Positions 3,971-50,217 of a stretch of 64,000 bases of DNA are shown in pieces. Every line of letters starts with the position of its first letter. Within the stretch, counting starts at the first letter, position 1. The notes below the pieces were generated by a model that made no database searches, was not told the origin of the DNA, and saw only the letters and a list, made by a program, of their open reading frames with translations. Origin of the DNA: Shinella zoogloeoides (GTDB lineage Bacteria > Pseudomonadota > Alphaproteobacteria > Rhizobiales > Rhizobiaceae); assembly GCF_003574625.1 (NCBI RefSeq), contig NZ_QNUJ01000001.1:558001-622000 (forward strand). Reading direction: 5' to 3'. The position numbers and the translations under genes are program-made.

Positions 3971-5416
3971 ATGAGACAGAACATGTATCCTGATACCCAA
4001 CTCTTCATCGCCGGCGAATGGACGAACGGCTCAGACGGTGAAACGCTCGCGGTTCTCAATCCGGCGACCGGCGGCGAAATCGGCCGTGTCGCGAAAGCGA
4101 CCACCCGCGACATGGATCGTGCGCTCGCAGCCGCTGCCAAAGCCTTCGAACAGTGGCGCAAGACGACGGCACGCGACCGCGCAAAACTGCTCCATGCGGC
4201 CGCCGACAAGCTGCGTGCCCGTATCGATGATATCGCGCCCGTCCTGACCATGGAACAGGGCAAGCCGCTTGCCGAAGCCCGGTCGGAACTGCGCAACGCC
4301 GATGATGTCATCCGATGGTTCGCGGAAGAGGCCATCCGCTCCTACGGCCGCATCATCCCGGCGCGCAAGCCCGGCGTGCAGCAGATGGTCATGAAGGAGC
4401 CGATCGGCGTGGTCGCTGCGTTCACGCCCTGGAACTATCCGGTCGCCCAGGCGATCCGCAAGATTTGCGCGGCTCTTGCCGCCGGCTGCACGGTCATCCT
4501 GAAGGCCGCCGAAGAGGCGCCGGCCTCCTGCGCAGCCATGGTTCGCGCCTTTGCCGATGCCGGTTTCCCTGATGGCGCGATCAACCTTCTCTACGGCACA
4601 CCTTCGGAAATTTCCGAGTATCTCATTCCGCATCCGGTGATCCGCAAGGTGTCCTTCACCGGTTCGACGCCGGTCGGCAAACATCTGACCGCGGTCGCCG
4701 GCGCCCACATGAAGCGGGTGACGATGGAGCTGGGCGGCCATGCGCCGTACATCGTCTGCGCCGATGCGGACCTTTCGTCCGCGGTTTCGATGCTGGCCGG
4801 CCACAAGTTCCACAATGCGGGCCAGGTCTGCATCGCGCCGACGCGCGTGCTGGTGGAAGAGCCTGTCTTCGACACTGTCCTCGAAGACTTCGTCACCGCG
4901 GCGAAGGCCGTGAAGGTGGGAGATGGTCTTTCCGACGGTATCGACATGGGGCCGATGGCGAATGCCCGCCGCCTCGACGCGATGGACCGACTGATCGGCG
5001 ACGCGGTCGCCAAGGGCGGCCGCCTGCTGACTGGCGGCAACCGCATCGGCAATGCCGGCTTCTTCTTCGAGCCGACGGTGCTGGCCGACGTGCCGCAGGA
5101 CGCCGCGATCATGAACGAGGAGCCGTTTGGGCCTGTCGCGGTCGTCAACCGTTTCGCGGCGGTGGATGCGGCAATTGCCGAGGCGAACCGGTTGCCGTTC
5201 GGCTTGGCCGCCTATGCCTTCACGCGGTCCCAGAGACACGCGCAGCGTTTCGCCGAAGACATCGAAACGGGCATGCTTTCGATCAACGATTACGGCCTTG
5301 CCTATGCGGAGGTTCCCTTCAACGGCGTGAAGGATTCCGGGTACGGCTCCGAGGGCGGGCCTGAGGCACTTGAGACATTCCAGACGATCAAGTTCGTTTC
5401 ACAGACGAATTTGTGA
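3971..5416 (+). CDS. NAD(P)-dependent aldehyde dehydrogenase (succinate-semialdehyde type)
   Basis: A 481-residue aldehyde dehydrogenase. E253 in M-E-L-G-G and C287 in N-A-G-Q-V-C are the catalytic pair. F-T-P-W-N-Y-P-V near 151-158 and S-F-T-G-S-T near 228-233 bind cofactor. Overall pattern is closest to the succinate-semialdehyde/aldehyde dehydrogenase group. It follows the alcohol dehydrogenase closely and is the last gene before an AT-rich gap with an inverted repeat (5424-5449), so it may end the first transcript. ATG 3983 is a possible alternative start. Confidence 0.88.
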   Translation: MRQNMYPDTQLFIAGEWTNGSDGETLAVLNPATGGEIGRVAKATTRDMDRALAAAAKAFEQWRKTTARDRAKLLHAAADKLRARIDDIAPVLTMEQGKPLAEARSELRNADDVIRWFAEEAIRSYGRIIPARKPGVQQMVMKEPIGVVAAFTPWNYPVAQAIRKICAALAAGCTVILKAAEEAPASCAAMVRAFADAGFPDGAINLLYGTPSEISEYLIPHPVIRKVSFTGSTPVGKHLTAVAGAHMKRVTMELGGHAPYIVCADADLSSAVSMLAGHKFHNAGQVCIAPTRVLVEEPVFDTVLEDFVTAAKAVKVGDGLSDGIDMGPMANARRLDAMDRLIGDAVAKGGRLLTGGNRIGNAGFFFEPTVLADVPQDAAIMNEEPFGPVAVVNRFAAVDAAIAEANRLPFGLAAYAFTRSQRHAQRFAEDIETGMLSINDYGLAYAEVPFNGVKDSGYGSEGGPEALETFQTIKFVSQTNL

Positions 5417-37793: not shown

Positions 37794-39155
37794 TCATGCG
37801 CTTGGCGGAATTTCTTCCTGTCCCTTCTCCGCTGCCCGCCGCGCCCGGATGGCCGCGGCGATGAAGACGCGCGACAGTCCATGGTAGAGCGGTTCGCGCG
37901 AGAGGATGCGCGACGTCAGGTAGCCGAGCATTGCCACGGCCATGATGGGGATCACGGCCTCGTGGTCGCCGGTCATTTCGAGGATGATGACGAAGGCGGT
38001 CATCGGCGCCTGCACGACGCCGGCGAAGTATCCCGCCATGCCGAGCACCGCCGAAAGGGCGATGCTCGTGCCGAGGAGCGAGCCAAGCGTGCTGCCGAGG
38101 CCGGCCCCGACCGAAAGCGATGGCGCGAAGATGCCGCCGGGTATGCCTGAAAGCATGGAGAGGAAGCCGGCTGCGAATTTTTCGAGGAAGAAAAGCAGCG
38201 GCAGGGCTTCGCCCTGCACGGCGCCCTTGGCCTGCTCGTAGCCTGTGCCGAAGGTCTTGCCGCCGGAGATGACGCCGATGGCGGCGATGGCAAGGCCGCA
38301 GCAGAGCGCCAGCAGCACCATGCGCCTCATCGGCGCCGGCTGCGCCCAGCGACGGATGCGCTGGCCGAAATGCAGTGCCATGCCGCTGAAGGCGGCGCCG
38401 AGCGCGCCGCCGCCGATGCCGCAGGCCAGAACGAGCCCCCAGTCCCGCATGCTTAGCGGTGCGACGGAGGTGGAGCCGAAATAATGATAGCTGCCGGAAA
38501 GGCCGAGCGCGGCAAGGCCTGAGAGGATGACGGCGGCGAGAACGATGCCATTGGTGCGGGCCTCGTAGGTGCGGCCCATCTCCTCGATGGCGAAGACGAT
38601 GCCGGCGAGCGGCGTGTTGAAGGCGGCGGCGATGCCGGCGGCCGAACCCGCGAGGATCAGGCCGCGTGCCTGTGCCATGCCGCCGAAGCGGGCGACTGCC
38701 AACATGATCGACGCGCCGACCTGCACTGTCGGGCCCTCGCGGCCGATGGAGGCGCCGGAGAAGAGGCCGAGCACGGTCAGGAGAATCTTGCCGAAAGCGA
38801 TACGCAACGAGAGCAGCCTGCCGCGATCCTCGTCATCTTTGAGATGCCGCGCGGCGATCGCCTGCGGAATGCCGCTACCCTGTGCGTTCGGGAAGAAACG
38901 GATCGCAAGATAGGCGGAGAGGGCGAAGCCCGCCGGCGTCAGAAGCAGCGGCAGCAGAAAGCTCCATTCCGTCGCCGTCGTCAGGCGGCCGAACCCATGC
39001 TGCGCCAGGTCGGCCAGCTTGGCGAAGCCGACGCTGATCACCCCGGTCGCCAGCGCCCCGCACCAGAAGACGAGCCGCGGGCGCCAGAGGGAGAAAGAAC
39101 CCCAGAAAACGCGGGATCGGCGGAGCAGCTTGGATTTTCTGTAGAAGGTGGGCAT
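37794..39155 (-). CDS. ClC-family chloride channel or H+/Cl- antiporter
   Basis: A 453-residue ClC protein. The selectivity-filter motifs are present: G-S-G-I-P (93-97), G-R-E-G-P (138-142) with gating glutamate E140, and G-G-I-F-A-P near 337-342. Roughly 18 membrane helices fit the length, and no CBS domains follow. The A-I-E-E segment near 188-191 supplies the inner proton glutamate of exchangers, favouring an H+/Cl- antiporter. Nothing in the neighbourhood explains its regulation. It is upstream of a SulP remnant on the same strand. Confidence 0.9.
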   Translation of the reverse strand: MPTFYRKSKLLRRSRVFWGSFSLWRPRLVFWCGALATGVISVGFAKLADLAQHGFGRLTTATEWSFLLPLLLTPAGFALSAYLAIRFFPNAQGSGIPQAIAARHLKDDEDRGRLLSLRIAFGKILLTVLGLFSGASIGREGPTVQVGASIMLAVARFGGMAQARGLILAGSAAGIAAAFNTPLAGIVFAIEEMGRTYEARTNGIVLAAVILSGLAALGLSGSYHYFGSTSVAPLSMRDWGLVLACGIGGGALGAAFSGMALHFGQRIRRWAQPAPMRRMVLLALCCGLAIAAIGVISGGKTFGTGYEQAKGAVQGEALPLLFFLEKFAAGFLSMLSGIPGGIFAPSLSVGAGLGSTLGSLLGTSIALSAVLGMAGYFAGVVQAPMTAFVIILEMTGDHEAVIPIMAVAMLGYLTSRILSREPLYHGLSRVFIAAAIRARRAAEKGQEEIPPSA

Positions 39156-39360: not shown

Positions 39361-40584
39361 TCATGCCGGCACCCTTGAAAGAACCTGAAGGTCGCTGCCG
39401 GTTGGGCTCTGGAATACACGCAAGCCGAATTCCGGAAGGATCGCGAACAGGTGGTCGAAGATGTCCGACTGGGTGCCTTCGTATCTGGCCCAGGCCGTGG
39501 TGTTGGCGAAGCAATAGATTTCCAGTGGCAGGCCTTCGGGCTGGGGCGGGAGCTGACGCACCATGATCGTCATGCCCTGATGGACGCCGGGATGATTGCG
39601 CAGATAATCCTCCACATAGGCGCGGAAGGTGCCGACATTGGTCGCGCGGCGCGTATTGGCGGGAATGCGGGCACGCTCGCCAAGCCTGCCGTTCCATTCG
39701 GACAGTTCCTCCTGCTTGTGCTTGAGATAGGTTTCCAGCCGGTCGAGCCTGGAAAGCCTTTCCTCCTCCTCGGTGTCGAGGAAGCGGATGCTCGTCTGGT
39801 CCAGATAGAGCGCGCGCTTGATGCGCCGGCCGCCCGCTTCCTGCATGCCGCGCCAGTTCTTCACCGGCTCGGTCACGAGCTTGCGGATGGGGATCGTGGT
39901 CACGGTCTTGTCGAAGTTCTGCACCTTGACGGTGTGAAGGGCGATCTCGACGATGTCGCCGTCGGCATTCTGGCCGGGCATCTCGATCCAGTCGCCGACA
40001 CGCACCATGTCCGTGGAGGATATCTGGATGCCGGCTACCAGCGACAGCAGCGTGTCCTGGAAGACCAGGATGAGGACGGCGGCCATCGCGCCGAGGCCGG
40101 ACAACAGGATCAGCGGCGAGCGATCTATCAGCGTGGCGATCATCAGGAGTGCGGCGATGACGTAGACCGCGATCTTGACGACCTGGATATAGCCCTTGAT
40201 CGGCTTCAGCCGCGCGTCGGGACGGCGATGATAGGTGGTGTCGACGATGTTGAGTGCCGCGCTGATGGCCATGGCGACCGTCAGGATCATGAAGGCGCTG
40301 GAGACGTTACGCACCACGACGACGACGAAGGCTGGCAGATTGGGCACGAGCGCGATGCCCGCCGAGACGACGAGCGCCGGCATGACATTGGCAAGCCTCT
40401 CGATCAGGCCATGCCGGCGTAGTTCCGGGTCGCGGCCAAAGGCGGTGAAGGCAAGCACGCGGTTGAGCGTACGCACCAGCAGTGCCTTCACCACATAATT
40501 GGCGAACAGCGCGGCAAAGCCGAGAGCGAGAAGCGCTATCCCGGTCGTGAGGATCGGGTGGATATCGGCAAAGTTTGAAATCAT
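39361..40584 (-). CDS. Mechanosensitive ion channel protein, MscS family (YbdG/MscM-like)
   Basis: A 407-residue channel from ATG 40584 (AGGAGTGACG upstream). Several membrane segments cover about residues 10-175. The MscS core follows, with G-L-G-A-M-A-A-V-L-I-L-V-F-Q-D-T near 161-176 and a beta domain (G-D-W-I-E-M-P) near 200-206. The acidic insertion near 280-330 and the N-terminal segment layout match the YbdG group rather than short MscS. It would release osmolytes on hypo-osmotic shock. Confidence 0.87.
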   Translation of the reverse strand: MISNFADIHPILTTGIALLALGFAALFANYVVKALLVRTLNRVLAFTAFGRDPELRRHGLIERLANVMPALVVSAGIALVPNLPAFVVVVVRNVSSAFMILTVAMAISAALNIVDTTYHRRPDARLKPIKGYIQVVKIAVYVIAALLMIATLIDRSPLILLSGLGAMAAVLILVFQDTLLSLVAGIQISSTDMVRVGDWIEMPGQNADGDIVEIALHTVKVQNFDKTVTTIPIRKLVTEPVKNWRGMQEAGGRRIKRALYLDQTSIRFLDTEEEERLSRLDRLETYLKHKQEELSEWNGRLGERARIPANTRRATNVGTFRAYVEDYLRNHPGVHQGMTIMVRQLPPQPEGLPLEIYCFANTTAWARYEGTQSDIFDHLFAILPEFGLRVFQSPTGSDLQVLSRVPA

Positions 40585-41379
40585 CGTCACTCCTGAACGT
40601 CTGTGCGGCGCCCCTTGCGGAGCCTGCCGCTGAAAGGAATTGTACCGGCTGCGCAACGCTTCGGCGTCTTCTTCGACCGGCCAAAAAGGGGCTTCAGGCG
40701 GCCTTCAATGCGACACCGGGCGTGGCGTCTTTGCCTTCCGGGCGAATATTCCCGAAAGGTGGGAAGGTCGGTGCGATGCAGAATAGGGCTGAGTTTTTCC
40801 CTGCCGATGAAAGAAACAATCCGAAAAAATCTGCGGATTCTGGCCGATACCAATTGATAATCCGTGTCGCGAAACACTGGAAGAATGATAATATAAAGAC
40901 AAAGAGAGCGATTGATCCGGAAGATGCTTTGATGGTGTTCTTTCCAATCTCTGTCATCGGCGATTCCTTTCGCTTTTTGTCCGCAGGCATATTCGGACAC
41001 ATTCCTCCGGTCGGGATCAATACGTTCTTATTCCATGAATTGCCGGGCAGGGCAAATCTGTGATGAAAAACAGTGCGGGCGGCCTGCATCGCTCCGGGGC
41101 GACTGGCCGCGCTGCTCGGGTGGCGGACGCGGCGCGCTATGCACCCGACAGGAAACCAGGCACCCAGCGCCGTGGTTGTCCCGGTCATCGATCGGTATGC
41201 AGGCGTTATAAAACCGCAACTTTAGAGGCGGCCGCGTCAAGGCCGCGTACCAGCCTCTTGTTTACGCTCCGCAAAACAGTTGGCCGGACGGCCCCGCGAT
41301 GTTGCGCCGGACGTTGAACGGGCGTCTAAGGAAACAGGCAGTCGCCTTGCGTTTGGCGATGACGAGCACTCCGCGCCCG
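40585..41379. other. Gene-poor stretch with an AT-richer core
   Basis: No recognisable domain. The portion near 40790-40980 is distinctly more AT-rich than the rest of the window and contains one possible small membrane-protein gene on the minus strand (listed separately). The right end (41240-41379) is the 3' flank of the bufferin-type operon and shows no clear terminator. Confidence 0.4.
40694..40957 (-). CDS. Possible small membrane protein (hypothetical)
   Basis: From ATG 40957, with AAAGGAAT eight bases upstream, an 87-residue frame has one hydrophobic segment (about residues 14-31: S-G-S-I-A-L-F-V-F-I-L-S-F-F) followed by basic and aromatic residues. No family is recognised. It lies in an AT-richer patch, so could be foreign or simply non-coding. 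Confidence 0.25.
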   Translation of the reverse strand: MTEIGKNTIKASSGSIALFVFILSFFQCFATRIINWYRPESADFFGLFLSSAGKNSALFCIAPTFPPFGNIRPEGKDATPGVALKAA

Positions 41380-41859
41380 TCATCCCGGGCGTCGGACCCG
41401 GCGAACAATCATCGCATCCAGCGACAGCAGCCCCGGGCCCCGAGCGGCGATGAACAGCAGGCAGACGGCCCAGGTGCCATGCGTCGGCCATGCGTCGGGA
41501 TAGACGAAGATCTCGATCACCAGCGTCATGCCCAGAAGCGCCAGCGCCGACAGGCGGCTTGCAAGGCCGACGACCAGCAGGACCGGGAAGACATGTTCGG
41601 CAAGAGCCGCAAGATGCGCGGCGAGCCATGGATCGATGAGGGGCAGCTTGTACTCGTTCTCGAAGAGATAGAGCGCATTATCGGAGAGCATCCAGCCGTT
41701 CACCTTCGTCTGGCCGGATTGCCAGAAGACGGCGGCGATCGAGAGCCGGGCAACCAGTGCGATGAGATCGTTCGGGATGCGGTCGAGTGCAGCAATGACC
41801 TGTCCGCCGAGACCCTGCGGCGCGGAAGTTACGGGGTCAGACATCGTGTCGGTCTTCAT
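41380..41859 (-). CDS. DoxX-family membrane protein of bufferin-type operon
   Basis: A 159-residue DoxX-like protein with four hydrophobic segments (about residues 30-48, 78-100, 104-122, 128-148) and the family's [12 protein letters not shown] near the first helix. GGAGG lies seven bases before ATG 41859, and ATGA overlap with the DUF2063 gene indicates coupling. DoxX proteins are frequent in operons with DUF2282, DUF692 and DUF2063 genes, where a redox or membrane role is suspected. Last gene of the four-gene operon. Confidence 0.85.
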
Positions 41860-42614
41860 GGAACGTCCTCCTTGAATGTCGTGAATGCGCCGGAACGGAG
41901 CAGGATGGCGAGCGCTTCGGTGAGATCGAAGCCGTTGTCGTCCAAAGCCGCGGCCGCTTGCGCGAGGTTCGCTCCTGCGGCGAGGCGGCGGAAGAACCGC
42001 GCGCCGGCCGGCGGCAGGGGAATAACTTCGACGGCAAGGCGCGGGCGAACGATGAGCGCATGTTCTCCTTGCCAGGGATCTATCGGGCCGAGCGGCCTCT
42101 CGCCGGCATTCATCGCCCAGATCGTCACCATGGGATGGGGTGAGGAGAGGATGGACAGTGCGGGGTGCGGTACGAGAACGAGGCTGCCGAGCCGGGCCGG
42201 ATCGACCGCGGCCAGCGCTGCCGGATCGAGCGGTCGCGCGTTGGCCGCGTGATAGGCGCGTCCGCGCGCCACTTCGAGACGCATCACATCGGGCAGATAG
42301 GCCAGCGGCCGTGCAGGCTCGAAAGCCGCTGCGAAGTCCGGAAAATCGTCGCCATAGGCGAGTAGCACCGGCGAGTGTGGCGGATGGTCTTTTATGAAGT
42401 CCGCTGCCATGGCCCGGAAGAAATCCGCCCCGACGATGCTTTCCGCCGCGGGAAAGCGCGAGGCCAGGGCACCCGCGAGGCTTGCCTTGACATTGTTCCG
42501 ATAGACGTCGTAGCGGCGCTGCGGCACGGCTTCGTTCCATGCCACCAGGCCATCGGGCGGCAGGCTTGTTCCGAAAAGTCCGGCGGCAAAGGCGTTCTGG
42601 GTGATCTCTGACAT
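41856..42614 (-). CDS. DUF2063 putative DNA-binding-domain protein, bufferin-operon partner (BufC-like)
   Basis: A 252-residue DUF2063 protein. The N-terminal helical domain has [14 protein letters not shown] near 33-46, then [10 protein letters not shown] and F-F-R-A-M-A near 53-69, the family hallmark. The C-terminal half resembles the partner-protein fold that docks on DUF692 enzymes. It begins two bases after the DUF692 stop. In systems of this type it is thought to present the precursor peptide to the DUF692 enzyme. Despite the name there is no sign that it binds DNA. Confidence 0.87.
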
Positions 42615-42616
42615 GG

Positions 42617-43471
42617 TCAGGCCGCTCTCTGCCGTGCGGCATCGTCGAGCATGCGCTGCGCCGAGACCACTTCCTTGCGCAGCACCGGCCAGGCCGGCAC
42701 GTCATTGTCCCATTCGATGAGGCTTGCCACCGGCCCGATACGGCGAAGAACGGTCTGGTAGAGCGCCCAGACGGGGTCCTTCACCGGCGTGTCGTGGCTG
42801 TCTATGAGCAGGGGCGCACCGAGATCGTCCACCGTTTCGGAATGGCCGCTGAGGTGGATTTCCCGCACGGCTTCGAGCGGGAAGCGGGCGACATAGGCGT
42901 CGGGATCGAGATTATGGTTCGTTGCGGCGACGAAGACATTGTTGACGTCGAGCAGCAGGCCGCAGCCGGTGCGCCGGACGATCTCGGCCAGGAAGGCGGT
43001 TTCCTCGATCGTACTTTCGGTAAAGAGCAGGTAGGTCGCGGGGTTTTCGAGCAGCATCTGCCGGCCCAGTGCCGACTGTACCTCGTCGATGTGATCGGCG
43101 ACGCGGACGAGCGTTTCCCCCGTATAGGGCAGGGGCAGGAGGTCGTTGAGGAAGACGCTGTCATGGGTCGACCAGGCGAGATGCTCGGAGAAGCTCTCCG
43201 GCTGATAGCGGTCGCAGAGCGCCTTCAGCCGGGCGAGATGATCACGGTCGAGCGGCTGCAGGGAGCCGATGGAAAGGCCGACGCCGTGAATGGAGATGGC
43301 ATGGTCCTCGCGCAGCTTGCCGAGCTGCGCATGCGGCGGGCCGCCTGCGCCCATGTAGTTTTCCGCATGGACCTCGAAGAAGCCGATGGGCTCCGGCGCG
43401 GCGAGGATATCGGCGAAATGCTCGGGCTTGAAGCCGGCGCCGGCACGGCGCGGAAGCGTGGAAGGGATCAT
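42617..43471 (-). CDS. DUF692 multinuclear non-heme iron oxygenase (MNIO; BufB-like)
   Basis: A 284-residue DUF692/MbnB-family TIM-barrel enzyme. Metal-ligand regions are visible along the barrel: H-A-E-N-Y-M-G near 35-41, S-I-H-G-V-G-L near 55-61, S-E-H-L-A-W near 94-99, E-N-P near 141-143, L-D-V-N-N near 173-177, H-L-S-G-H-S near 206-211 and E-W-D near 257-259. Such enzymes modify cysteines in RiPP precursors, giving oxazolone/thioamide or thiooxazole groups that bind copper. It lies 63 bases after the precursor gene, with a palindrome between. Substrate is presumably the neighbouring DUF2282 peptide. Confidence 0.9.
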
Positions 43472-43495
43472 GACGAGACCTTTCTGAAGAGAGGT

Positions 43496-43518
43496 GACGG
43501 CGCCGGGCCGGCGCCGTC
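43496..43518. other. Perfect palindrome between precursor and modifying-enzyme genes
   Basis: GACGGCGCCGG (43496-43506) and CCGGCGCCGTC (43508-43518) are 11-base arms around a single G. In RNA it folds into a hairpin with stem of about ten base pairs directly 3' of the precursor gene. It would lower downstream expression relative to the precursor, or protect its mRNA end. Confidence 0.7.
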
Positions 43519-43534
43519 CGCTGCAGGACTCGCG

Positions 43535-43816
43535 TCAGGCCGGGGCCGGGCCCTGTTCCAGCATGCCGTGCCCGTCGGGGGTCTTCATCGACATGCAGGT
43601 GCCCTTGGGAACCAGCTTGAAGGCGTTCTTCTGATAGTCGATCTTCGAGGTGCCGGCGCAGGTCGTGCCCGGGCCTGCGGCGCAGTCGTTCTGGCCCTTC
43701 ATCGCGATGCCGTAGCACTTCTCCTTGGCGTCATCGGCGGCGGCGGGCGTGGCAATGGCGGCAAGCGCGGAAGCAAGCGAACCGGCAAGGGCGAGGGTGG
43801 CGATCGTGGTCTTCAT
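43535..43816 (-). CDS. DUF2282 bufferin-type RiPP precursor (BufA-like)
   Basis: A 93-residue DUF2282 protein from ATG 43816 (GGAG upstream). Signal peptide about residues 1-27 (cleavage near A-A-A-D). The mature part has four cysteines at 34, 45, 53 and 74, in E-K-C-Y-G, Q-N-D-C, T-T-C-A-G and K-G-T-C contexts, the conserved DUF2282 pattern. The tail after C74 has H83. First gene of an operon with DUF692, DUF2063 and DoxX genes. Related peptides in Caulobacter are DUF692-modified copper-binding bufferins, exported to the periplasm. Function here is inferred from gene content. Confidence 0.88.
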
Positions 43817-43864
43817 TCTCTGTCTCCGTTTTGGGGCCAGCCGCAATTGGCTGTGCAGGATCGG

Positions 43865-43892
43865 CTACGGAGGGAAGGAGACGGCTCGTTAC
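43865..43892 (-). promoter_or_regulatory. ECF-type promoter of the bufferin operon
   Basis: On the minus strand GTAAC (43892-43888) is followed after 18 bases by CGTAG (43869-43865). The same pair occurs upstream of the divergent sigma-factor gene. The predicted start is about 40 bases before ATG 43816. Confidence 0.65.
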
Positions 43893-44005
43893 AGCGGGGC
43901 CTATCGATTTTTCACGAAAACCTTGACGATGGATCGATCCGTTTAAGAAAAAATCCTTTTGTATCAGCTGTTTGGGCGTTCCGTGCATTTCTCGCTGCAC
44001 GCGCG

Positions 44006-44032
44006 GTAACAAATTCGTGTCTCCCGGCGTAG
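44006..44032 (+). promoter_or_regulatory. ECF-type promoter of the sigma/anti-sigma operon
   Basis: GTAAC (44006-44010) and CGTAG (44028-44032) are 17 bases apart. The start codon GTG 44044 is only 11 bases past the -10 element, so the mRNA would be almost leaderless. Matches the motif facing the bufferin operon, implying autoregulation. Confidence 0.65.
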
Positions 44033-44043
44033 GGTAGACAGCA

Positions 44044-44598
44044 GTGAAACAGTCGGCGCGCGAAGAGGAATGGGCAGCATGGCTGCGCCTTGCCATGAAG
44101 GGCGAGACGCAGGCCTATAGCCGTTTCCTCGTGGCGGTAACGCCGTATCTGCGCGCCATGGCGCGGCGGCGTTGCGACCAGTACGGCGCTCCGGCGAGCG
44201 AGGCGGAGGATGTCGTGCAGGAGGTGCTGCTCGCCATCCATCTCAAGCGCGGCACATGGGACCCCGCCCGACCGCTCGGCCCCTGGTTGACGACCATCGT
44301 GCGCAACAAGCTGGTCGATAGCCTGCGGCGCCGTGGTCGACACGGCAATGTGCCGCTGGAGGATGTTGCGGATTTCCTGGAGGCGGAGGACGAGACGCAC
44401 GAGGCTGCCGACCGGCTCGATGCGAAGACCATGCTCGACCGGCTGAAGGATCCGCAGCGTGACATCGTGCGCTCGATTTCCCTGGAAGGTGCGAGCGTCA
44501 GGGAGACGGCGGAGAGGTTGAAGATGACGGAGGTCGCGGTGCGCGTATCCCTCCACCGGGCGCTGAAATCGCTGGCGGCCCTTTATCGGAGCGAATGA
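44044..44598 (+). CDS. ECF-family RNA polymerase sigma factor (SigF-like)
   Basis: A 184-residue sigma factor with only regions 2 and 4. Region 2 covers about residues 20-95 (E-D-V-V-Q-E-V-L-L-A-I and P-W-L-T-T-I-V-R-N-K-L-V-D). Region 4 covers about 125-180 (Q-R-D-I-V-R-S-I-S-L-E-G-A-S-V-R-E-T-A-E-R-L). GTG 44044 is used since no ATG fits the N-terminus. It is followed by an NrsF-like anti-sigma gene and is divergent from the DUF2282 operon. The shared promoter motif predicts that it transcribes both units. The inducing signal is probably metal or oxidative stress. Confidence 0.9.
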   Translation: MKQSAREEEWAAWLRLAMKGETQAYSRFLVAVTPYLRAMARRRCDQYGAPASEAEDVVQEVLLAIHLKRGTWDPARPLGPWLTTIVRNKLVDSLRRRGRHGNVPLEDVADFLEAEDETHEAADRLDAKTMLDRLKDPQRDIVRSISLEGASVRETAERLKMTEVAVRVSLHRALKSLAALYRSE

Positions 44599-44601
44599 CA
44601 T

Positions 44602-45237
44602 ATGAAGACCGACGACCTGATCACCCTGATGACGCAAGATGCATCTGTCGACCTGCGCTACGGCCGGGCGCTTGTACTTGCGCTCGGGACGGGCACTGTC
44701 TTTTCCGCGGTGCTGCTGATCGTCACGATCGGTCTGCGGCACGACATGGCGAGTGTCTTCGAGACGGTGCGTGTGCTCTTCAAGATAAGCGTTACCTTGG
44801 TGCTCGCCGTCCTTGCAGCCCGGCTTGCCATGCGCATCGGCCGGCCGGGGGCGGAGATGCGTTTCCCCGCTCTCCTGCTCGGCGTGCCCTTTGCCATGGT
44901 CGCTGTCGCCGTCATCATCGAACTCACCACGCTGCCGGTTGATGCTTGGCGGACGAGTCTCGTCGGACGCAACGCGCTGTTCTGTCTGTTCTTCGTGCCG
45001 GTCCTGTCGCTTGCGCCCTTGACGGGCCTGTTCTGGGCGCTGAAAAAAGGCGCACCCGAAAATCCGACGGCGGCCGGTGCCGCTGCCGGCCTTGCGGCAA
45101 GCGCAATTGCCGCAGCGATTTACGCCTGGCATTGCCCTGACGACAGCCCACTCTTTCTTGCCACCTGGTACACGATCGCCATCGCCGGCGTGACCGTCGC
45201 AGGCGCACTGCTTGGCCGGCGATTGTTGCGCTGGTAA
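44602..45237 (+). CDS. NrsF/DUF1109-family membrane anti-sigma factor
   Basis: A 211-residue protein with six hydrophobic segments (about residues 26-46, 54-72, 89-108, 124-144, 152-170, 184-204). This is the NrsF/DUF1109 layout, with a short cytoplasmic N-terminus that would hold the sigma factor. Cysteines occur in N-A-L-F-C-L (helix 4) and A-W-H-C-P (loop 5-6); the second is in the position proposed for metal or redox sensing. It begins three bases after the sigma stop. Release of the sigma factor on metal stress is known in Caulobacter and inferred here. Confidence 0.87.
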   Translation: MKTDDLITLMTQDASVDLRYGRALVLALGTGTVFSAVLLIVTIGLRHDMASVFETVRVLFKISVTLVLAVLAARLAMRIGRPGAEMRFPALLLGVPFAMVAVAVIIELTTLPVDAWRTSLVGRNALFCLFFVPVLSLAPLTGLFWALKKGAPENPTAAGAAAGLAASAIAAAIYAWHCPDDSPLFLATWYTIAIAGVTVAGALLGRRLLRW

Positions 45238-45308: not shown

Positions 45309-45535
45309 CGTAGTGTTAGACAGATTTCTGCCGGTGTCTTCATCGTGCAGGGCTGGCAGGACGACACGGTCTTCAAGGACCTGCGCATCCAGGCGCGCGC
45401 CGCGGCGGATATCTCCGTCGCGCTCCTCAAGGGCGAACCGCTTGCGAAGGGCCTGATGAACACGAGCTTCGACAATGGCGGCAATGTCATCCCCGGCGCC
45501 TCGCTGCCGGTGCCCTCGGCTAGAACCCTTCAAGC
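45309..45535 (+). pseudogene. Sugar ABC substrate-binding protein, C-terminal fragment
   Basis: A plus-strand frame (no good start) reads V-F-I-V-Q-G-W-Q-D-D-T-V-F-K-D-L-R, then A-A-D-I-S-V-A-L-L-K-G-E-P-L-A-K-G-L. This matches the C-terminal lobe of XylF-type sugar-binding proteins. The rest (about 250 residues) is absent. Its 3' part overlaps the end of the minus-strand permease gene at 45530. A broken remnant of another transporter beside the YtfQ-like system. Confidence 0.6.
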
Positions 45536-46513
45536 GCTGCGGTGCCGCGCCATCAGCTTTGCCTGCAGCACGACGACGACGAGCAGGAAGGCGCCCCGGA
45601 TGACGGATTGCCAGTAGGCGGAAAGCGAGATCCAGCCGAGGCCGTTTTCGAAGTTGAGGATGTTGAAGACCATGGCGAGGAGCAGGGCGCCGGCGAGCGT
45701 CGCCCCGACGGAACCCGAGCCGCCGGTAAGCAGCGTGCCGCCCACCACGACGGAGGCGATGGCGAAGAGCTCCCAGCCGACGCCCTCCGTCGGCTGGCCC
45801 GCGCCGAACTGCGCGGCGAGGATGACGCCGGCAAGGCCGGCGAGCGTGCCGGAGGCGAGATAGACGGCGGCCAGCGTGCGCTCGACCTTGAGGCCCATCA
45901 GGCCGGCCGTCGCCTCGCCGTCGCCGATGGCGAGGATATGGCGGCCGACCGGCAGCTTCTCGAGCACCAGCCAGCCGAGGACATAGGCGGCGATGCCGAT
46001 CCAGGCAGGGATGGGAAAGCCCAGGAAATCGTCCTGGCCGATGGTAGTGAAGCCGCTGTCGTAGGAGACGGAGACCGACTGATTGTCGGCAAGCAGCAGC
46101 CCTGTGCCATAGGCCGCCAGCATGGTCGCGAGCGTGGCGATGAAGGGCTGGATGCGCATCTTCGTGATGATGAAGCCGTTCAGCGCACCGACGGCGAAGC
46201 CCGCCGCCATGCCGCCGAGGAGGCCGGCCGCCCAGTGATAGGGCGACAGGAGGGCCGCCACCACGCTTGCCATCGCCGCCGTGCCGCCGACCGAAAGATC
46301 GATGCCGCCGGTGATGATGACGAAGGCCATGCCGAGCGCGATCAGCGCGAACATGGAATTGTAGCGCAGGAAGCTGAGGATATTGAACGATGACAGGAAG
46401 TTGTCGTAGCGCAGCGCGCCGAACAGGATGAGGCCGGCGAGCGCGAGAATGACGCCGGCGCGGGCGAGATCGCCCGAGGACTTGATGGCGAAGGGGCGGA
46501 GGAGGGCGTGCAT
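45530..46513 (-). CDS. CUT2 sugar ABC permease (YjfF-like)
   Basis: A 327-residue permease from ATG 46513 (GAGGAGA upstream; TTG 46528 also possible). It has the RbsC/YjfF signature F-V-I-I-T-G-G-I-D-L-S-V-G near 69-81 and many hydrophobic helices. With the next gene upstream it forms a heterodimeric channel in a galactofuranose-type system. Three-base spacing and overlap of stop and start codons with the upstream permease suggest coupling. Last gene of the operon; its tail overlaps a pseudogene on the other strand. Confidence 0.87.
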   Translation of the reverse strand: MHALLRPFAIKSSGDLARAGVILALAGLILFGALRYDNFLSSFNILSFLRYNSMFALIALGMAFVIITGGIDLSVGGTAAMASVVAALLSPYHWAAGLLGGMAAGFAVGALNGFIITKMRIQPFIATLATMLAAYGTGLLLADNQSVSVSYDSGFTTIGQDDFLGFPIPAWIGIAAYVLGWLVLEKLPVGRHILAIGDGEATAGLMGLKVERTLAAVYLASGTLAGLAGVILAAQFGAGQPTEGVGWELFAIASVVVGGTLLTGGSGSVGATLAGALLLAMVFNILNFENGLGWISLSAYWQSVIRGAFLLVVVVLQAKLMARHRSA

Positions 46514-46524
46514 GATGGGTCTCC

Positions 46525-47535
46525 TCAATGCCTGTCGGCGCGCTGCTGGATGAAGACGGCGAGCACGATGAGCCCGGCCTTGACGATGAGGGCGGCGGCA
46601 TCCGGCACGCCATTGGCCAGCAGCGTGTAGCGCACGAGCTGGATGACGAAGGCGCCGATGACGGTGCCGACGATGTTGGCCCGCCCGCCCGTCAGGAGCG
46701 TGCCGCCGACGGCGACGGCCGCGATGGCGTCGAGCTCCATGCCGAGGCCGACGAGATTGGCGTCGCTCGCCGAATTGCGCGCGACCACGACGAGGCCGGC
46801 AAGACCGGCCAGCGCACCGCTGATCATGTAGACCAGCAGCTTGACGCGCTTGACCGGAATGCCCGTCAGCCGCGCCGCCTTCTCGTTGCCGCCGACGGCG
46901 ATGACCTGGCGGCCGATGACGGTGTAGCGGATCATGGCGGAGGCGAGCGCGACGATGACGATCATCAGCACGACCTGCGCCGGAATGCCGGCGACGCGGC
47001 CCATGGCGATGAACTGGAATCCTTCGTTTCTGAAGACCTGCAGATTGCCGTTGGTCATGACCTGCGCGATGCCGCGGCCGGCGATGAACAGCACCAGCGT
47101 CGCGATGATCGGCTGGATCGAGAAGCGGGTCACGAGCAGCCCGTTGAACAGGCCGAACAGGCCGGCGACCGCGACCGGGATGACGAAGGCGAGCGCCACG
47201 GCGAAGGCCATGTTCTCCACCTGCCAGAACTGGCTCATGAAGATCATCGGCGCCAGCGCCCCCGATATCGCCATCAGCGAGCCGACCGAAAGGTCGATGC
47301 CGCCGGTGGCGATGACCAGCGTCATGCCGGTGGCGACGATGACGATGGTGGCGACCTGCGTGAGGTTCACGTTCAGCGTCTGCCAGGACAGGAAGTTCGG
47401 CGTCACCGCGATGTTGAAGACGATGAGCGCCAGGAAGGCGACGAAGGTGCCGTAGCGGCTCGCCAGCGAAAACAGCCGGCCGCCCGAAGAGAGCGTGCCC
47501 GGCGGCTGCGGGGCGGGGGTCTCGATCGTCGTCAT
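46525..47535 (-). CDS. CUT2 sugar ABC permease (YtfT-like)
   Basis: A 336-residue permease. T-L-V-I-A-T-G-G-I-D-L-S-V-G-S near 72-86 is the family signature, followed by a second large hydrophobic half. It overlaps the ATPase gene by four bases (47532-47535, ATGA). Pairing with the YjfF-like gene and a YtfQ-like binding protein gives the E. coli ytfQRT-yjfF arrangement. Confidence 0.87.
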   Translation of the reverse strand: MTTIETPAPQPPGTLSSGGRLFSLASRYGTFVAFLALIVFNIAVTPNFLSWQTLNVNLTQVATIVIVATGMTLVIATGGIDLSVGSLMAISGALAPMIFMSQFWQVENMAFAVALAFVIPVAVAGLFGLFNGLLVTRFSIQPIIATLVLFIAGRGIAQVMTNGNLQVFRNEGFQFIAMGRVAGIPAQVVLMIVIVALASAMIRYTVIGRQVIAVGGNEKAARLTGIPVKRVKLLVYMISGALAGLAGLVVVARNSASDANLVGLGMELDAIAAVAVGGTLLTGGRANIVGTVIGAFVIQLVRYTLLANGVPDAAALIVKAGLIVLAVFIQQRADRH

Positions 47536-49040
47536 GTCATTTCACCTGATGGGTCCACCTGATGGGCCATGGCCGAAAGCAGCGCCGCCTCGCTCAGCTC
47601 CCCGCGCGGCAGGGTCGCGACCGATGTGCCGTCGCTGAGCACGGTGACGCGGTCGGCGGCGGCGAGAAGCTCTTCCAGCTCGGAGGAGATCATCAGCACG
47701 CTGAGGCCCTCGTCGGCGAGGCTGCGCAGGAGCTTGAGGATTTCCGACTTCGCGCCGACATCGATGCCGCGGGTCGGCTCGTCGATGATGAGGACGCGCG
47801 GATCGGTGGCCAGCCAGCGGGCAAGCAGCACCTTCTGCTGGTTGCCGCCGGAGAGTTCCTTGATCGGCTGGTCGGGCGAGGCGCATTTGACGCCGAGCGC
47901 CCGGATGTAGCGGGTGACGATCTCGTTCTGCCGCGCGCGGTCGACGATGCCGGCCTTCCTCAGCTTCGGCAGCAGCGCCAGCGTCATGTTCTCGCGGATG
48001 CTCATGTCGGGCACGATGCCGTCGATCTTGCGGTCCTCGGAAACGAGGCCGATGCCGTCGGCGATCGCATCCGCCGGCTCGCGATAGGCGCGCTCCCGTC
48101 CGTCCATGCGGATGGTGCCACGCTGCATCCTGTCCGCGCCGAAGACGAGGCGGGCGGTCTCCGTGCGGCCGGCGCCGAGCAGGCCCGCAAGGCCCGAGAT
48201 CTCGCCCTCGCGCACGTCGAGGCTCACGTCGCGCACGCGCACGCCCGCACCGGCATGCTCGACGGAAAGGCGGACGGGCCGGTCGGGCACGTCCCCGTCC
48301 GGCGCCATTGCCTGGAAGGCGGCGAGCTCCTTGCCGAGCATGTGGCGCACCAGCGCCATCTTGGGCATGTCGGCCATCGGGCTTTTCGCCACCGTCTGGC
48401 CGTCCCGCATGATCGTCACGCGGTCGCAGATCGCATAGAGTTCGTCCAGCCGGTGGCCGATGAAGATGACGGCGACGCCGGAGCGCTTCAGCGTGCGGAT
48501 CGTCTCGAAGAGCACCGCGACCTCCCGCTCGTCGAGCGAGGAGGTCGGCTCGTCCATGATGACGAGGCGGGCGTTCTGCGTGACCGCGCGGGCGATCGCC
48601 ACCATCTGCCGGGTCGCGGCATCGAAATGCGCGACGGGACGGTCGACGTCGATGGAAAGGTTGAAGGTCTTCAGCACCGCCTCCGCGCCGCGCCGCATGG
48701 CGGCGTGGTCGATCAGGCCGAAGCGCCTGGGCTCGCGGGAGAGGTAAATATTCTCTGCCACCGAACGCTGCGGGGCGAGGTTGATTTCCTGGTAGATCGT
48801 CGCGATGCCGGCGGACTGGGCCTCCGCAGGCATGGAGAAATCGACCTCCCTGCCGTCGAAGGTGATGCTGCCTTCGTCGCGGCGATAGACGCCGGTGAGG
48901 ATCTTGATCAGCGTGGATTTTCCCGCGCCGTTCTGCCCGACCAGCGCCATGACCTCCGCCGGCTCGACGTCGAGCGAGGCGGATTTCAGCGCGGCGACGC
49001 CGGCGAACACCTTGGAAATGCCCTGCATGGACAGAAGCAT
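47532..49040 (-). CDS. CUT2 sugar ABC ATP-binding protein with two ATPase domains (YtfR/RbsA-like)
   Basis: A 502-residue double ATPase from ATG 49040 (GGAGGAA upstream); the longer frame to 49136 is not family-like. First domain about residues 1-235 with Walker A G-Q-N-G-A-G-K-S-T near 35-43; second about 255-500 with a degenerate Walker A (G-L-L-G-A-G-R-T-E) and L-S-G-G-N-Q-Q-K. The unequal domains are normal for RbsA/YtfR. It lies 114 bases after the binding-protein gene, with a hairpin in between. Confidence 0.9.
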   Translation of the reverse strand: MLLSMQGISKVFAGVAALKSASLDVEPAEVMALVGQNGAGKSTLIKILTGVYRRDEGSITFDGREVDFSMPAEAQSAGIATIYQEINLAPQRSVAENIYLSREPRRFGLIDHAAMRRGAEAVLKTFNLSIDVDRPVAHFDAATRQMVAIARAVTQNARLVIMDEPTSSLDEREVAVLFETIRTLKRSGVAVIFIGHRLDELYAICDRVTIMRDGQTVAKSPMADMPKMALVRHMLGKELAAFQAMAPDGDVPDRPVRLSVEHAGAGVRVRDVSLDVREGEISGLAGLLGAGRTETARLVFGADRMQRGTIRMDGRERAYREPADAIADGIGLVSEDRKIDGIVPDMSIRENMTLALLPKLRKAGIVDRARQNEIVTRYIRALGVKCASPDQPIKELSGGNQQKVLLARWLATDPRVLIIDEPTRGIDVGAKSEILKLLRSLADEGLSVLMISSELEELLAAADRVTVLSDGTSVATLPRGELSEAALLSAMAHQVDPSGEMT

Positions 49041-49100
49041 CGGTTCCTCCTCTATCCCACCCATGACGAACCTACACCCGAACCGGCGGAAGATCGCTCG

Positions 49101-49133
49101 AAAACGGCCGAGACGGTGGTGCCGCCCCGGCCG
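49101..49133 (-). terminator. Terminator-like hairpin after the binding-protein gene
   Basis: On the minus strand CGGCCG (49133-49128) and CGGCCG (49110-49105) enclose an inner GCGG/CCGT pairing and are followed by TTTT (49104-49101). Probably partial termination after the binding-protein gene and before the ATPase. Confidence 0.6.
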
Positions 49134-49154
49134 CATATGGCTTGGGAGTTTCGA

Positions 49155-50135
49155 TCAATAGGCGCCGTCGAGTTCCGCGGCCGCGTTGGACGCGTCGTAG
49201 AACTTGTCGTCGTTGACGAGGATCGGGTCGATGGCCTCGCCCTTGGCGTAGCGCTGCATCGTCTCGAACGCCTTCGGCCCGAAGCGCGGGTTGCACTCGA
49301 CGACGGCCGCGATCTTGCCGTCGACCACCGCCTGCACGGCTTCCTTGCCGCCATCGATGGAGAGCACCAGCACATCCTTGCCCGGCACCTTGCCGGCCGC
49401 TTCCAGCGCCGCGATGGCGCCCATCGCCATCTCATCGTTGTGAGCGTAGATGATGTCGGCATCCGGATGCGCCTGAAGCAGCGCCTCGGCCACCTGGCGG
49501 CCCTTGTCGCGGGCGAAGTCGCCGGTCTGCGAGGCGACGATCTCGAAGCCGCCGGCCGCCTTGATCGCCTCGTCGAAGCCCTTCTTGCGGTCGTTGGCCG
49601 GCGACGAGCCGGTCGTACCTTCCAGCTCGATGATCTTCGACTTGCCATTGGCGTTCTTGGCGAGCCATTCGGCGATGCGCTTGCCTTCCTCGACGAAGTT
49701 CGAGCCGATGAAGGTCAGGTAGTCCTCGCCGGCCTTGGCGAGCGAGGGATCGACCGAGCGGTCGAGCAGGATGACCGGGATGCCGGCCTTCTTGGCGGCC
49801 ATGACGGCCGGGATCAGCGGCTTTTCCTCGCGCGGCGCGAGGAAGATGACGTCGACGCCCTGGGCGATCATCGAGTTGACGTCAGCGACCTGCTTGGCGG
49901 CCGAGCCTGCGGCGTCGGTATAGACGAGTTGGTAGCCGAGCTTCTCGGCCTCGGCCTTCATGCTGTTCGTCTGGGCGATGCGCCAGGGATTGTTGGATTC
50001 GGTCTGCGCGAAGCCCACCTTGTAGGTGTCCTTCTGTGCGAGCTTCGGCACTTCGGCGATTGCGACGCCGGCGACGGCAAGCGCGCCGATGGCCGTTGCC
50101 GCAAGCATGAAGGTGCGACGGGACATGGATGTCAT
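49155..50135 (-). CDS. Sugar ABC transporter substrate-binding protein (YtfQ-like, galactofuranose type)
   Basis: A 326-residue periplasmic-binding-protein type I protein from ATG 50135 (GGGAGGAGA upstream). The signal peptide (about residues 1-28) contains S-R-R-T-F-M, a Tat-like twin arginine, and may be exported folded. The mature protein has K-V-G-F-A-Q-T-E-S-N-N-P-W-R near 39-52, D-A-A-G-S-A-A-K-Q near 73-81 and Y-A-H-N-D-E-M-A-M-G near 228-237, the YtfQ pattern. Ligand is probably a hexose furanose. It is divergent from a LacI-type regulator with an operator between. Confidence 0.87.
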   Translation of the reverse strand: MTSMSRRTFMLAATAIGALAVAGVAIAEVPKLAQKDTYKVGFAQTESNNPWRIAQTNSMKAEAEKLGYQLVYTDAAGSAAKQVADVNSMIAQGVDVIFLAPREEKPLIPAVMAAKKAGIPVILLDRSVDPSLAKAGEDYLTFIGSNFVEEGKRIAEWLAKNANGKSKIIELEGTTGSSPANDRKKGFDEAIKAAGGFEIVASQTGDFARDKGRQVAEALLQAHPDADIIYAHNDEMAMGAIAALEAAGKVPGKDVLVLSIDGGKEAVQAVVDGKIAAVVECNPRFGPKAFETMQRYAKGEAIDPILVNDDKFYDASNAAAELDGAY

Positions 50136-50217
50136 GAGCGGTTTCTCCTCCCAGGTTCTGGCCGGTGCTCCTCTACCGGACGTGAGCAAATTCCTGCTTC
50201 ACATGCGCAAATCTTGC

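What the first reader, a model, noticed from the sequence alone, without database searches (positions are those of the whole stretch)
41380..45237. Complete bufferin-type RiPP locus with its own ECF sigma/NrsF anti-sigma switch
Seen in sequence: a DUF2282 secreted peptide with four cysteines, a DUF692 enzyme, a DUF2063 partner and a DoxX protein form one operon, divergent from an ECF sigma factor and an NrsF/DUF1109 membrane anti-sigma factor. Known: DUF692 enzymes modify cysteines of RiPP precursors (methanobactin, bufferins), and related bufferins in Caulobacter bind copper and are under SigF/NrsF control. Inferred: this alphaproteobacterium makes a periplasmic modified peptide that sequesters copper or another metal. 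The precise modification, the role of DoxX and of the single tail histidine (H83) are not established.
Basis: partly seen in the sequence, partly recalled or inferred. Interest (0 to 1): 0.9.

Follow-up and report, generated by a model that had tools for sequence, protein, structure and literature searches.

The report
Bufferin copper-peptide locus with sigma switch
A soil bacterium of the Shinella group carries a complete, recognisable gene set for making and exporting a small metal-binding peptide (a bufferin), together with its own stress-sensing on-switch; the kind of system is already known, and what this copy adds is how its peptide gene and its switch have changed in evolution.

Summary
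The locus is a Buf1 bufferin cluster (DUF2282 precursor, MNIO maturase, DUF2063/RRE partner, DoxX) divergent from a SigF-like ECF sigma factor and NrsF. As a kind it is known: Caulobacter (sigF-nrsF//CC3254-57) and Sinorhizobium meliloti (rpoE7-ecfR7//SMb20530-27) have the same layout, and there the sigma factor drives the buf side. I add four things. (1) A promoter word, GTAAC-N16-18-CGTAG, occurs exactly twice in the 5.4-Mb genome, firing outwards from this intergenic region; 12 of 12 MNIO-bearing genomes of the genus (of 21) keep the pair. (2) Its -10 is CGTA, not the published ECF16 CGAA; in relatives with both sites the two -10 words agree in 35 of 36. (3) The single precursor looks like a chimera of the two tandem precursors of related loci: signal half from copy 1, core half from copy 2. 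Agrobacterium vitis shows the same fusion independently. (4) One genome of the genus keeps sigF-nrsF without any MNIO. Copper buffering is the likeliest role, by homology only; signal, modification and metal were not testable here.

The parts
43535..43816 (-). bufA: DUF2282 (Buf1) precursor, 93 aa, Sec-type signal (by eye), four Cys (34, 45, 53, 74), steps 11/8/21
   Evidence: PF10048 89 bits; Cys positions; steps shared by 80 of 106 precursors counted, the other 26 being 11/7/21
42617..43471 (-). bufB: MNIO (DUF692) maturase, 284 aa
   Evidence: PF05114 348.8 bits, MNIO_BufB over cut-off; phmmer to 3bww E 1.3e-41, also TglH and MbnB chains; H62, H97, E142, D175, H206, D224, H226, E253 kept in 81 of 81 aligned
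41856..42614 (-). bufC: DUF2063 partner protein, 252 aa, fold of the MNIO partner proteins
   Evidence: PF09836 86.8 bits; AlphaFold model pLDDT 91.5, Foldseek best hits TglHI complex chains 8hi7_A and 8hci_A and NGO1945 3dee
41380..41859 (-). DoxX-family membrane protein, 159 aa; its start codon overlaps the bufC stop
   Evidence: PF07681 67.5 bits; below the cut-off of NCBIfam HvfX (50.3 of 80)
43865..43892 (-). predicted sigma promoter of the buf operon: GTAAC-N18-CGTAG, 48 nt before bufA
   Evidence: one of two such sites in the genome
44006..44032 (+). predicted sigma promoter of sigF-nrsF: GTAAC-N17-CGTAG, 11 nt before the GTG start
   Evidence: one of two such sites in the genome
44044..44598 (+). 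SigF/RpoE7-like ECF sigma factor (ECF16-like), 184 aa, GTG start
   Evidence: PRK12512 268.9 bits over cut-off 198; Pfam regions 2 and 4
44602..45237 (+). nrsF: membrane anti-sigma factor, 211 aa, with C128 and C178
   Evidence: PF06532 191 bits; both Cys kept in 53 of 53 aligned; AlphaFold model pLDDT 88.9, all-helical with six helices of 17 residues or more

Best explanation
An envelope stress, most likely excess copper, acts through the two conserved cysteines of the membrane protein NrsF (C128, C178) and releases the ECF sigma factor. The sigma factor fires two promoters that face away from each other: one for itself and NrsF, one for bufA-bufB-bufC-doxX. In the cytoplasm BufC presents the precursor to the multi-iron enzyme BufB, which turns the two middle cysteines (C45, C53) into thiooxazoles; C34 and C74 form a disulphide. 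The Sec signal exports the product, which buffers copper in the periplasm. Shown here: gene identities, active-site conservation, partner fold, promoter pair, conservation of both NrsF cysteines, and a precursor that looks like a recombinant of two tandem copies. Inferred from studied relatives: the modification, the metal, export, the signal and the release step. DoxX has no assigned step.
For: Family scores. MNIO relatives in the PDB and conserved residues. BufC fold as in TglI and NGO1945. All 106 precursors counted hold exactly four cysteines from the first core Cys on, in two fixed step patterns (L078 was passed over by my motif). Promoter pair: 2 sites in the genome, both here; present in 12 of 12 MNIO-bearing genomes among 21 of the genus; on both sides in 36 of 47 divergent relatives against 0 of 833 control windows. 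In Caulobacter SigF drives CC3254-57 (PMC3511200); the SigF regulon is induced by Cu in both media and cell types and a sigF mutant is Cu-sensitive (PMC8224329, passages). In S. meliloti RpoE7 overexpression induces SMb20530-27 and ecfR7 (PMC6180224). Bufferin 1 was assigned thiooxazoles (PMC12668002), on the central cysteines, the outer two forming a disulphide (PMC12452194).
Against: No product or metal phenotype is known for this organism. S. meliloti rpoE7 and SMb20530 fusions did not answer H2O2, CdCl2 or K2CrO4; copper is not among the agents named. Related ECF16 pairs in Bradyrhizobium and Brucella answer H2O2 or HOCl, and a Caulobacter sigF mutant is cited as impaired against oxidative stress in stationary phase. 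In Caulobacter sigF is not strongly self-regulated under Cr or Cd, and SigF and two of its targets were dispensable for Cr/Cd survival. In Cupriavidus the gig cluster is reported without effect on Cu resistance, possibly masked. The window's buf promoter spacer is 18 nt against 17 in all 37 relatives with a buf-side site. 9 of 21 genomes of the genus have no MNIO match, so the operon is accessory.
Confidence: 0.8

Rival explanations
1. The switch senses oxidants (peroxide, hypochlorous acid), not metal, and the peptide with DoxX protects periplasmic thiols; copper enters only through the oxidative damage it causes.
For: In Bradyrhizobium OsrA, C179 is needed for the H2O2 response and C129 for sigma binding; Brucella ECF16 answers HOCl; the same two cysteines are kept here. 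A Caulobacter sigF mutant is cited as weak against oxidative stress in stationary phase.
Against: SigF-dependent genes of Caulobacter are not induced by agents that generate reactive oxygen (PMC3511200 abstract) and are part of the Cu response in every condition tested. S. meliloti rpoE7 did not answer H2O2.
Confidence: 0.15
2. It is a bufferin, but its main target is another soft metal such as gold, silver or mercury.
For: The gig operon of Cupriavidus is named for gold and answers Au, Ag and Cu; MerC-bufferin fusions exist.
Against: The studied DUF2282 products are linked to copper; nothing in the locus points to another metal.
Confidence: 0.15
3. The locus is intact but little used: the longer spacer of the buf promoter and the single precursor mark a system in decline.
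For: 18-nt spacer in G000 and G018 only, of the 12 genomes; one precursor instead of two; no MNIO in 9 of 21 genomes, one of which keeps sigF-nrsF.
Against: Reading frames open and conserved residues kept; BufB 97.5% and BufA 100% identical in the second genome of the species.
Confidence: 0.12
4. The single precursor is the ancestral state and the tandem pair in related loci is the later one.
For: Outside the 30 nearest-type loci only L039 and L059 have two precursors, and the cores of 44 of 45 outgroup single precursors are closer to copy 2. At DNA level the window core leans to copy 2 against 4 of 5 pairs tried, but slightly to copy 1 against L005 (21 to 18).
Against: The 12 Shinella rows (support 100) lie inside the two-copy loci in the tree. 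Their signal half resembles copy 1 (0.67 against 0.50) while 45 outgroup single precursors show no such lean (0.40 against 0.40).
Confidence: 0.2

Closest known systems
[quoted passage not shown]
   Same: Same six families, same divergent layout and gene order, two NrsF cysteines, GTAAC-type promoters on both sides (PMC3511200: abstract, sections 6, 7, 9, 12)
   Different: Caulobacter has a second SigF-controlled buf operon (CC2907-05) and CC2748 in the regulon, and its -10 is CGAA. Here the -10 is CGTA, the genome has one DUF2282 and one MNIO, and I found no second target
Sinorhizobium meliloti rpoE7-ecfR7 // SMb20530-SMb20527
   Same: Same layout in a related genus; RpoE7 overexpression induces the four divergent genes and ecfR7 (PMC6180224: passages and section 9)
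   Different: Mapped -10 there is CGAAT on both sides; here CGTAG
Cupriavidus gig and Legionella GIG operons
   Same: MNIO, DUF2063, DoxX and a bufferin-type precursor, answering gold and copper (PMC5413113 and PMC8224329, passages)
   Different: For the Legionella operon RpoS, not an ECF/NrsF pair, is suggested as a regulator in the passages seen
Buf2 and EGKCG precursors (oxazolin, fontiphorin)
   Same: MNIO plus DUF2063 partner making 5-thiooxazoles (PMC12668002: abstract and passages)
   Different: Other precursor type; bufA here scores 19.5 of 60 against NCBIfam BufA2

Membership tests
Buf1 bufferin (DUF2282) RiPP cluster | DUF2282 precursor with four conserved cysteines and a Sec signal | tested here: met
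   PF10048 89 bits; C34, C45, C53, C74; step pattern shared with 80 of 106. The signal was judged by eye; no signal-peptide program was used
Buf1 bufferin (DUF2282) RiPP cluster | MNIO maturase of the BufB kind | tested here: met
   NF050167 381.2 over 310
Buf1 bufferin (DUF2282) RiPP cluster | PME-type 1 partner: DUF2063 plus RRE-type fold | tested here: met
   PF09836; model matches TglHI chain A and 3dee. NCBIfam HvfC model not reached (41.7 of 142)
Buf1 bufferin (DUF2282) RiPP cluster | Thiooxazole on the central cysteines; copper binding | not testable with these tools
   Needs mass spectrometry and metal assays
ECF16 sigma / NrsF anti-sigma pair | ECF sigma gene next to a DUF1109/NrsF membrane protein with two conserved cysteines | tested here: met
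   PF06532 191 bits, C128 and C178 in 53 of 53, six long helices. NCBIfam AntiSigF_NrsF equivalog not reached (92.4 of 300)
ECF16 sigma / NrsF anti-sigma pair | Promoter (T/C)GTAAC-N17-CGAA as published (PMC8315932) | tested here: not met
   -35 core met; -10 is CGTA on both sides here and on the sigF side in 30 of 46 relatives with a site. I therefore call it ECF16-like
ECF16 sigma / NrsF anti-sigma pair | Assignment of the sigma protein to group ECF16 by the ECF classification | not tested
   No ECF group models were available; the closest NCBIfam model over its cut-off is PRK12512
ECF16 sigma / NrsF anti-sigma pair | Sigma held by NrsF, released on stress, driving both units | not testable with these tools
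   The promoter pair supports it; no expression data for this organism

The most novel reading that the evidence does not exclude
In one lineage of Hyphomicrobiales the sigma factor and both its promoters moved together to a new -10 word (CGTA instead of CGAA), which would insulate this bufferin switch from other ECF16 factors; and within that lineage Shinella and A. vitis each fused two tandem bufferin genes into one recombinant precursor, so that bufferin cores are swapped between export signals by ordinary recombination.
Probability: 0.55. Interest if true: 0.5.

Novelty: new member of a known kind. Interest (0 to 1): 0.38.

Why it matters
Bufferins are a young RiPP class whose signals and targets are still being mapped. 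This locus is a compact version with one precursor, one enzyme and one switch (one DUF2282, one MNIO and one NrsF match in the genome), so a sigF or bufB deletion would have no paralogue to hide it. The shared -10 change on both promoters would be a natural test of how ECF sigma factors and promoters change together, and the tandem and fused precursors suggest which parts of a bufferin can be exchanged.

Tried and rejected
Sulphite as the signal: S. meliloti RpoE1 and RpoE4 answer sulphite (PMC3511301, passages), but they are put in ECF26, not ECF16, and their promoters differ (PMC6180224), so this was dropped.

A wider regulon in the own genome: GTAAC-N16-18-CGTA gives 8 places, two of them the known pair, and GTAAC-N16-17-CGAA gives 17. 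Both counts are below the backward-pattern controls (111 and 58), which are crude. For the 23 other places I read the longest forward ORF starting within 250 nt; 20 had one, 3 had none, several of the ORFs printed look like wrong frames, and I ran no family search on them. I recognised no metal or Msr gene. This is weak evidence of absence.

Residues of the sigma factor that could read the new -10: columns 44, 83, 86, 93 and others differ in make-up between 31 CGTA rows and 26 other rows. The second group also held loci without a classed sigF-side site, and the groups follow ancestry, so no residue can be named.

Replicon type: RepC (PF03428) was found on contigs 4 and 12, not on the window's contig 1, so I do not say whether the locus is on a plasmid here; in Shinella sp. 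H4-D48 it lies on plasmid p1.

Sequence search of BufC against the PDB gave no hit; the fold search did.

Paper searches: 'bufferin' by word start matched 70,329 papers, and the 20 listed are on buffering; whole words were used next. The founding bufferin paper (Leprevost et al.) did not appear; what I say of it comes from PMC12452194 and PMC12668002.
Full report
WHAT IS THERE. Minus strand: bufA (DUF2282) 43535-43816, bufB (MNIO/DUF692) 42617-43471, bufC (DUF2063) 41856-42614, doxX 41380-41859. Plus strand: an ECF sigma factor 44044-44598 and NrsF 44602-45237. All pass the Pfam cut-offs, and bufB passes the NCBIfam cut-off for bufferin maturases, 381.2 against 310. The stricter NCBIfam models for HvfC, HvfX and NrsF are not reached (41.7 of 142, 50.3 of 80, 92.4 of 300). 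The genome (5.375 Mb, 27 contigs) has one match each for the MNIO, DUF2282 and NrsF families. The nearest named loci are Shinella (L002, L003), and two genomes of the own genus carry promoter pairs identical to those of L002 and L003, so I take the genus to be Shinella.

THE COMPARISON SET. So the counts below describe near relatives, nearly all Alphaproteobacteria by title. Of 80 loci, my ORF search found bufA in 79 (not L047), bufB in 80, bufC in 80, a DoxX-like ORF in 78, the sigma factor in 56 and NrsF in 53; some loci are cut by contig ends.

THE PARTS. BufA has four cysteines, C34, C45, C53 and C74. The 106 precursors counted (window plus 105 of 106 relative ORFs; L078 was passed over by my motif) all have exactly four from the first core Cys on, with steps 11/8/21 (80, the window's) or 11/7/21 (26). 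H83 is not fixed: 57 of 106 have a His after the last Cys, 46 of 56 in the window and the near set. BufB matches 3bww, TglH and MbnB chains, and H62, H97, E142, D175, H206, D224, H226 and E253 are kept in 81 of 81; that these are iron ligands is recalled from MbnB work and not tested. BufC found nothing by sequence in the PDB, but its model (pLDDT 91.5) matches the TglHI complex chains 8hi7_A and 8hci_A and NGO1945 (3dee), the only three hits at E 0.001 or better. NrsF keeps C128 and C178 in 53 of 53 aligned, and its model is helical with six long helices. They stand at nearly the same positions as C131 and C181 of Caulobacter NrsF and C129 and C179 of OsrA; I did not align those proteins.

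THE SWITCH. GTAAC-N16-18-CGTAG occurs twice in the whole genome: 43865-43892 firing towards bufA and 44006-44032 firing towards sigF (the pattern read backwards, a crude control, gives 37). In the genus, 12 of 21 genomes have an MNIO; all 12 have the divergent pair beside it, and none of the other nine has such a pair, read from the rows. Single sites occur in every genome of the genus, so only the pair is telling. Of the 80 relatives, 47 have a divergent sigma gene by my criterion: 36 of 47 have sites in both directions, 10 on the sigF side only, 1 on the buf side only, 0 none; control windows from the same loci with both, 0 of 833 (that pattern allowed CGTA or CGAA). In the window species the buf-side spacer is 18 nt, where 37 of 37 relatives with a buf-side site have 17.

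THE -10 WORD. The published ECF16 consensus is (T/C)GTAAC-N17-CGAA (PMC8315932, passages), and the mapped S. meliloti RpoE7 promoters have CGAAT (PMC6180224). Here it is CGTAG. On the sigF side 30 relatives have CGTA and 16 CGAA; of 36 loci with both sites 26 are T/T, 9 A/A and 1 mixed, L031. In the tree all CGTA rows but L031 fall in one group of 39 rows (support 97) that holds no CGAA row, so this is probably one main event, and the concordance counts loci, not events. Sigma residues that follow the split cannot be separated from ancestry.

THE PRECURSOR. In the near set (L002-L030 and L040, 30 loci) 25 have two tandem bufA genes, copy 1 with the 11/7/21 core and copy 2 with 11/8/21; five have one: L002, L003, L004, L026 and L019. 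L019 has a broken-looking start, resembles neither signal (0.27, 0.25) and was left out of the tree. On a tree of BufB, BufC, sigma and NrsF (58 rows, 930 columns, rows chosen for having all four genes; quick search, LG+G4, no bootstraps, with long-branch warnings for L042/L035, L033 and others) the 12 Shinella rows form a group (100) inside the two-copy loci; 6 changes of copy number are needed and starred branches force at least 4. For three of the twelve (window, L002, L003) the signal half resembles copy 1 (0.67 against 0.50) and the core half copy 2 (0.74 against 0.55). Of 45 outgroup single precursors, the signal half shows no lean (0.40, 0.40) and the core leans to copy 2 in 44. The other nine Shinella precursors are 88 to 100% identical to the window's; in L144 only residues 31-93 aligned. 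Base by base, L026 (A. vitis) has 29 copy-1 against 3 copy-2 letters before the shared QNDC stretch and 10 against 35 after it, measured against L020, and 30/2 and 8/32 against L006. The window gives 14/3, 22/8, 28/10, 30/7 and 24/8 before, and 10/17, 10/25, 21/18, 10/25 and 12/16 after, against L010, L025, L005, L017 and L027; L005 is the one that does not fit. So the A. vitis case is clear and the Shinella case likely: two separate collapses of a tandem pair into one in-frame chimera. L004 and L033 show the same lean and may be further cases.

THE ORPHAN SWITCH. One genome of the genus, G009, has no MNIO match yet keeps sigF-nrsF (84% and 76% identical) with a CGTAG promoter (L134). A second similar site lies on the same contig at 1524-1550, in front of an ORF with no Pfam match (1611-2135) and a YHS-domain protein (32.8 bits, cut-off 30.3). 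This could be a second target, from one genome only.

AGAINST THE KNOWN. Caulobacter SigF drives CC3254-57, CC2907-05 and CC2748 (PMC3511200: abstract, sections 6, 7, 9, 12). There sigF is not strongly self-regulated under Cr or Cd, and the genes were dispensable for survival of those metals. Its regulon is the shared core of the copper response and a sigF mutant is copper-sensitive (PMC8224329, passages). RpoE7 overexpression in S. meliloti induces the four divergent genes, but fusions did not answer H2O2, Cd or chromate (PMC6180224). Buf1 clusters with sigma and NrsF, and tandem precursors, are noted in PMC12452194 (abstract, sections 14 and 18, passages). The modification is 5-thiooxazole (PMC12668002, abstract and passages). 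As to print: DUF2282 with 'tandem' gave 4 papers, 3 listed; Shinella with bufferin terms 21, 10 listed, with no 'Shinella' in any of the ten; 'ECF16' 17 papers, all listed, of which I saw passages of three; bufferin or MNIO with recombination and gene duplication 0. I saw no report of this locus, the CGTA word or fused precursors, but this library lacks most subscription papers and the ECF classification papers were not read.

VERDICT. A complete and well-preserved member of a known system. The identification is firm and control by its own sigma factor is well supported by sequence. Copper is the best guess. The joint -10 change and the recombinant precursor are details I did not find in print.

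Noticed in passing
window 43865-43892: Spacer of the buf promoter is 18 nt in the window and in the second genome of the species (G018), 17 in the other ten MNIO-bearing genomes of the genus.
   Followed up: partly
L134 3925-5113 (G009 contig 12): Orphan sigF-nrsF pair with its promoter in a genome without any MNIO match.
   Followed up: partly
L135 1524-1550: A second CGTAG-type site on the same contig of G009, in front of an ORF without Pfam match (1611-2135) and a YHS-domain protein (2206-2664): a possible second target of the sigma factor.
   Followed up: partly
L026 about 4532-4924: Agrobacterium vitis precursor is a copy 1/copy 2 recombinant, separate from the Shinella one.
   Followed up: yes
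L031, between its sigma gene and bufA: Only locus of 36 with mixed -10 words, CGAA towards bufA and CGTA towards sigF: a possible intermediate.
   Followed up: no
L019 about 4251-4915: Mycoplana azooxidifex locus looks damaged: no sigma hit, a partial NrsF hit, and a short bufA with an odd start.
   Followed up: no
window 44006-44044: The sigF promoter ends 11 nt before the GTG start, so its message would be nearly leaderless.
   Followed up: no
window 45530-50189: Beside the locus lies an ABC transporter on the minus strand (two BPD_transp_2 permeases, an ATPase, a Peripla_BP_4 binding protein); on the other side an MscS channel (39361-40656) and a ClC-type channel (37794-39155). No sign of a link.
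   Followed up: no
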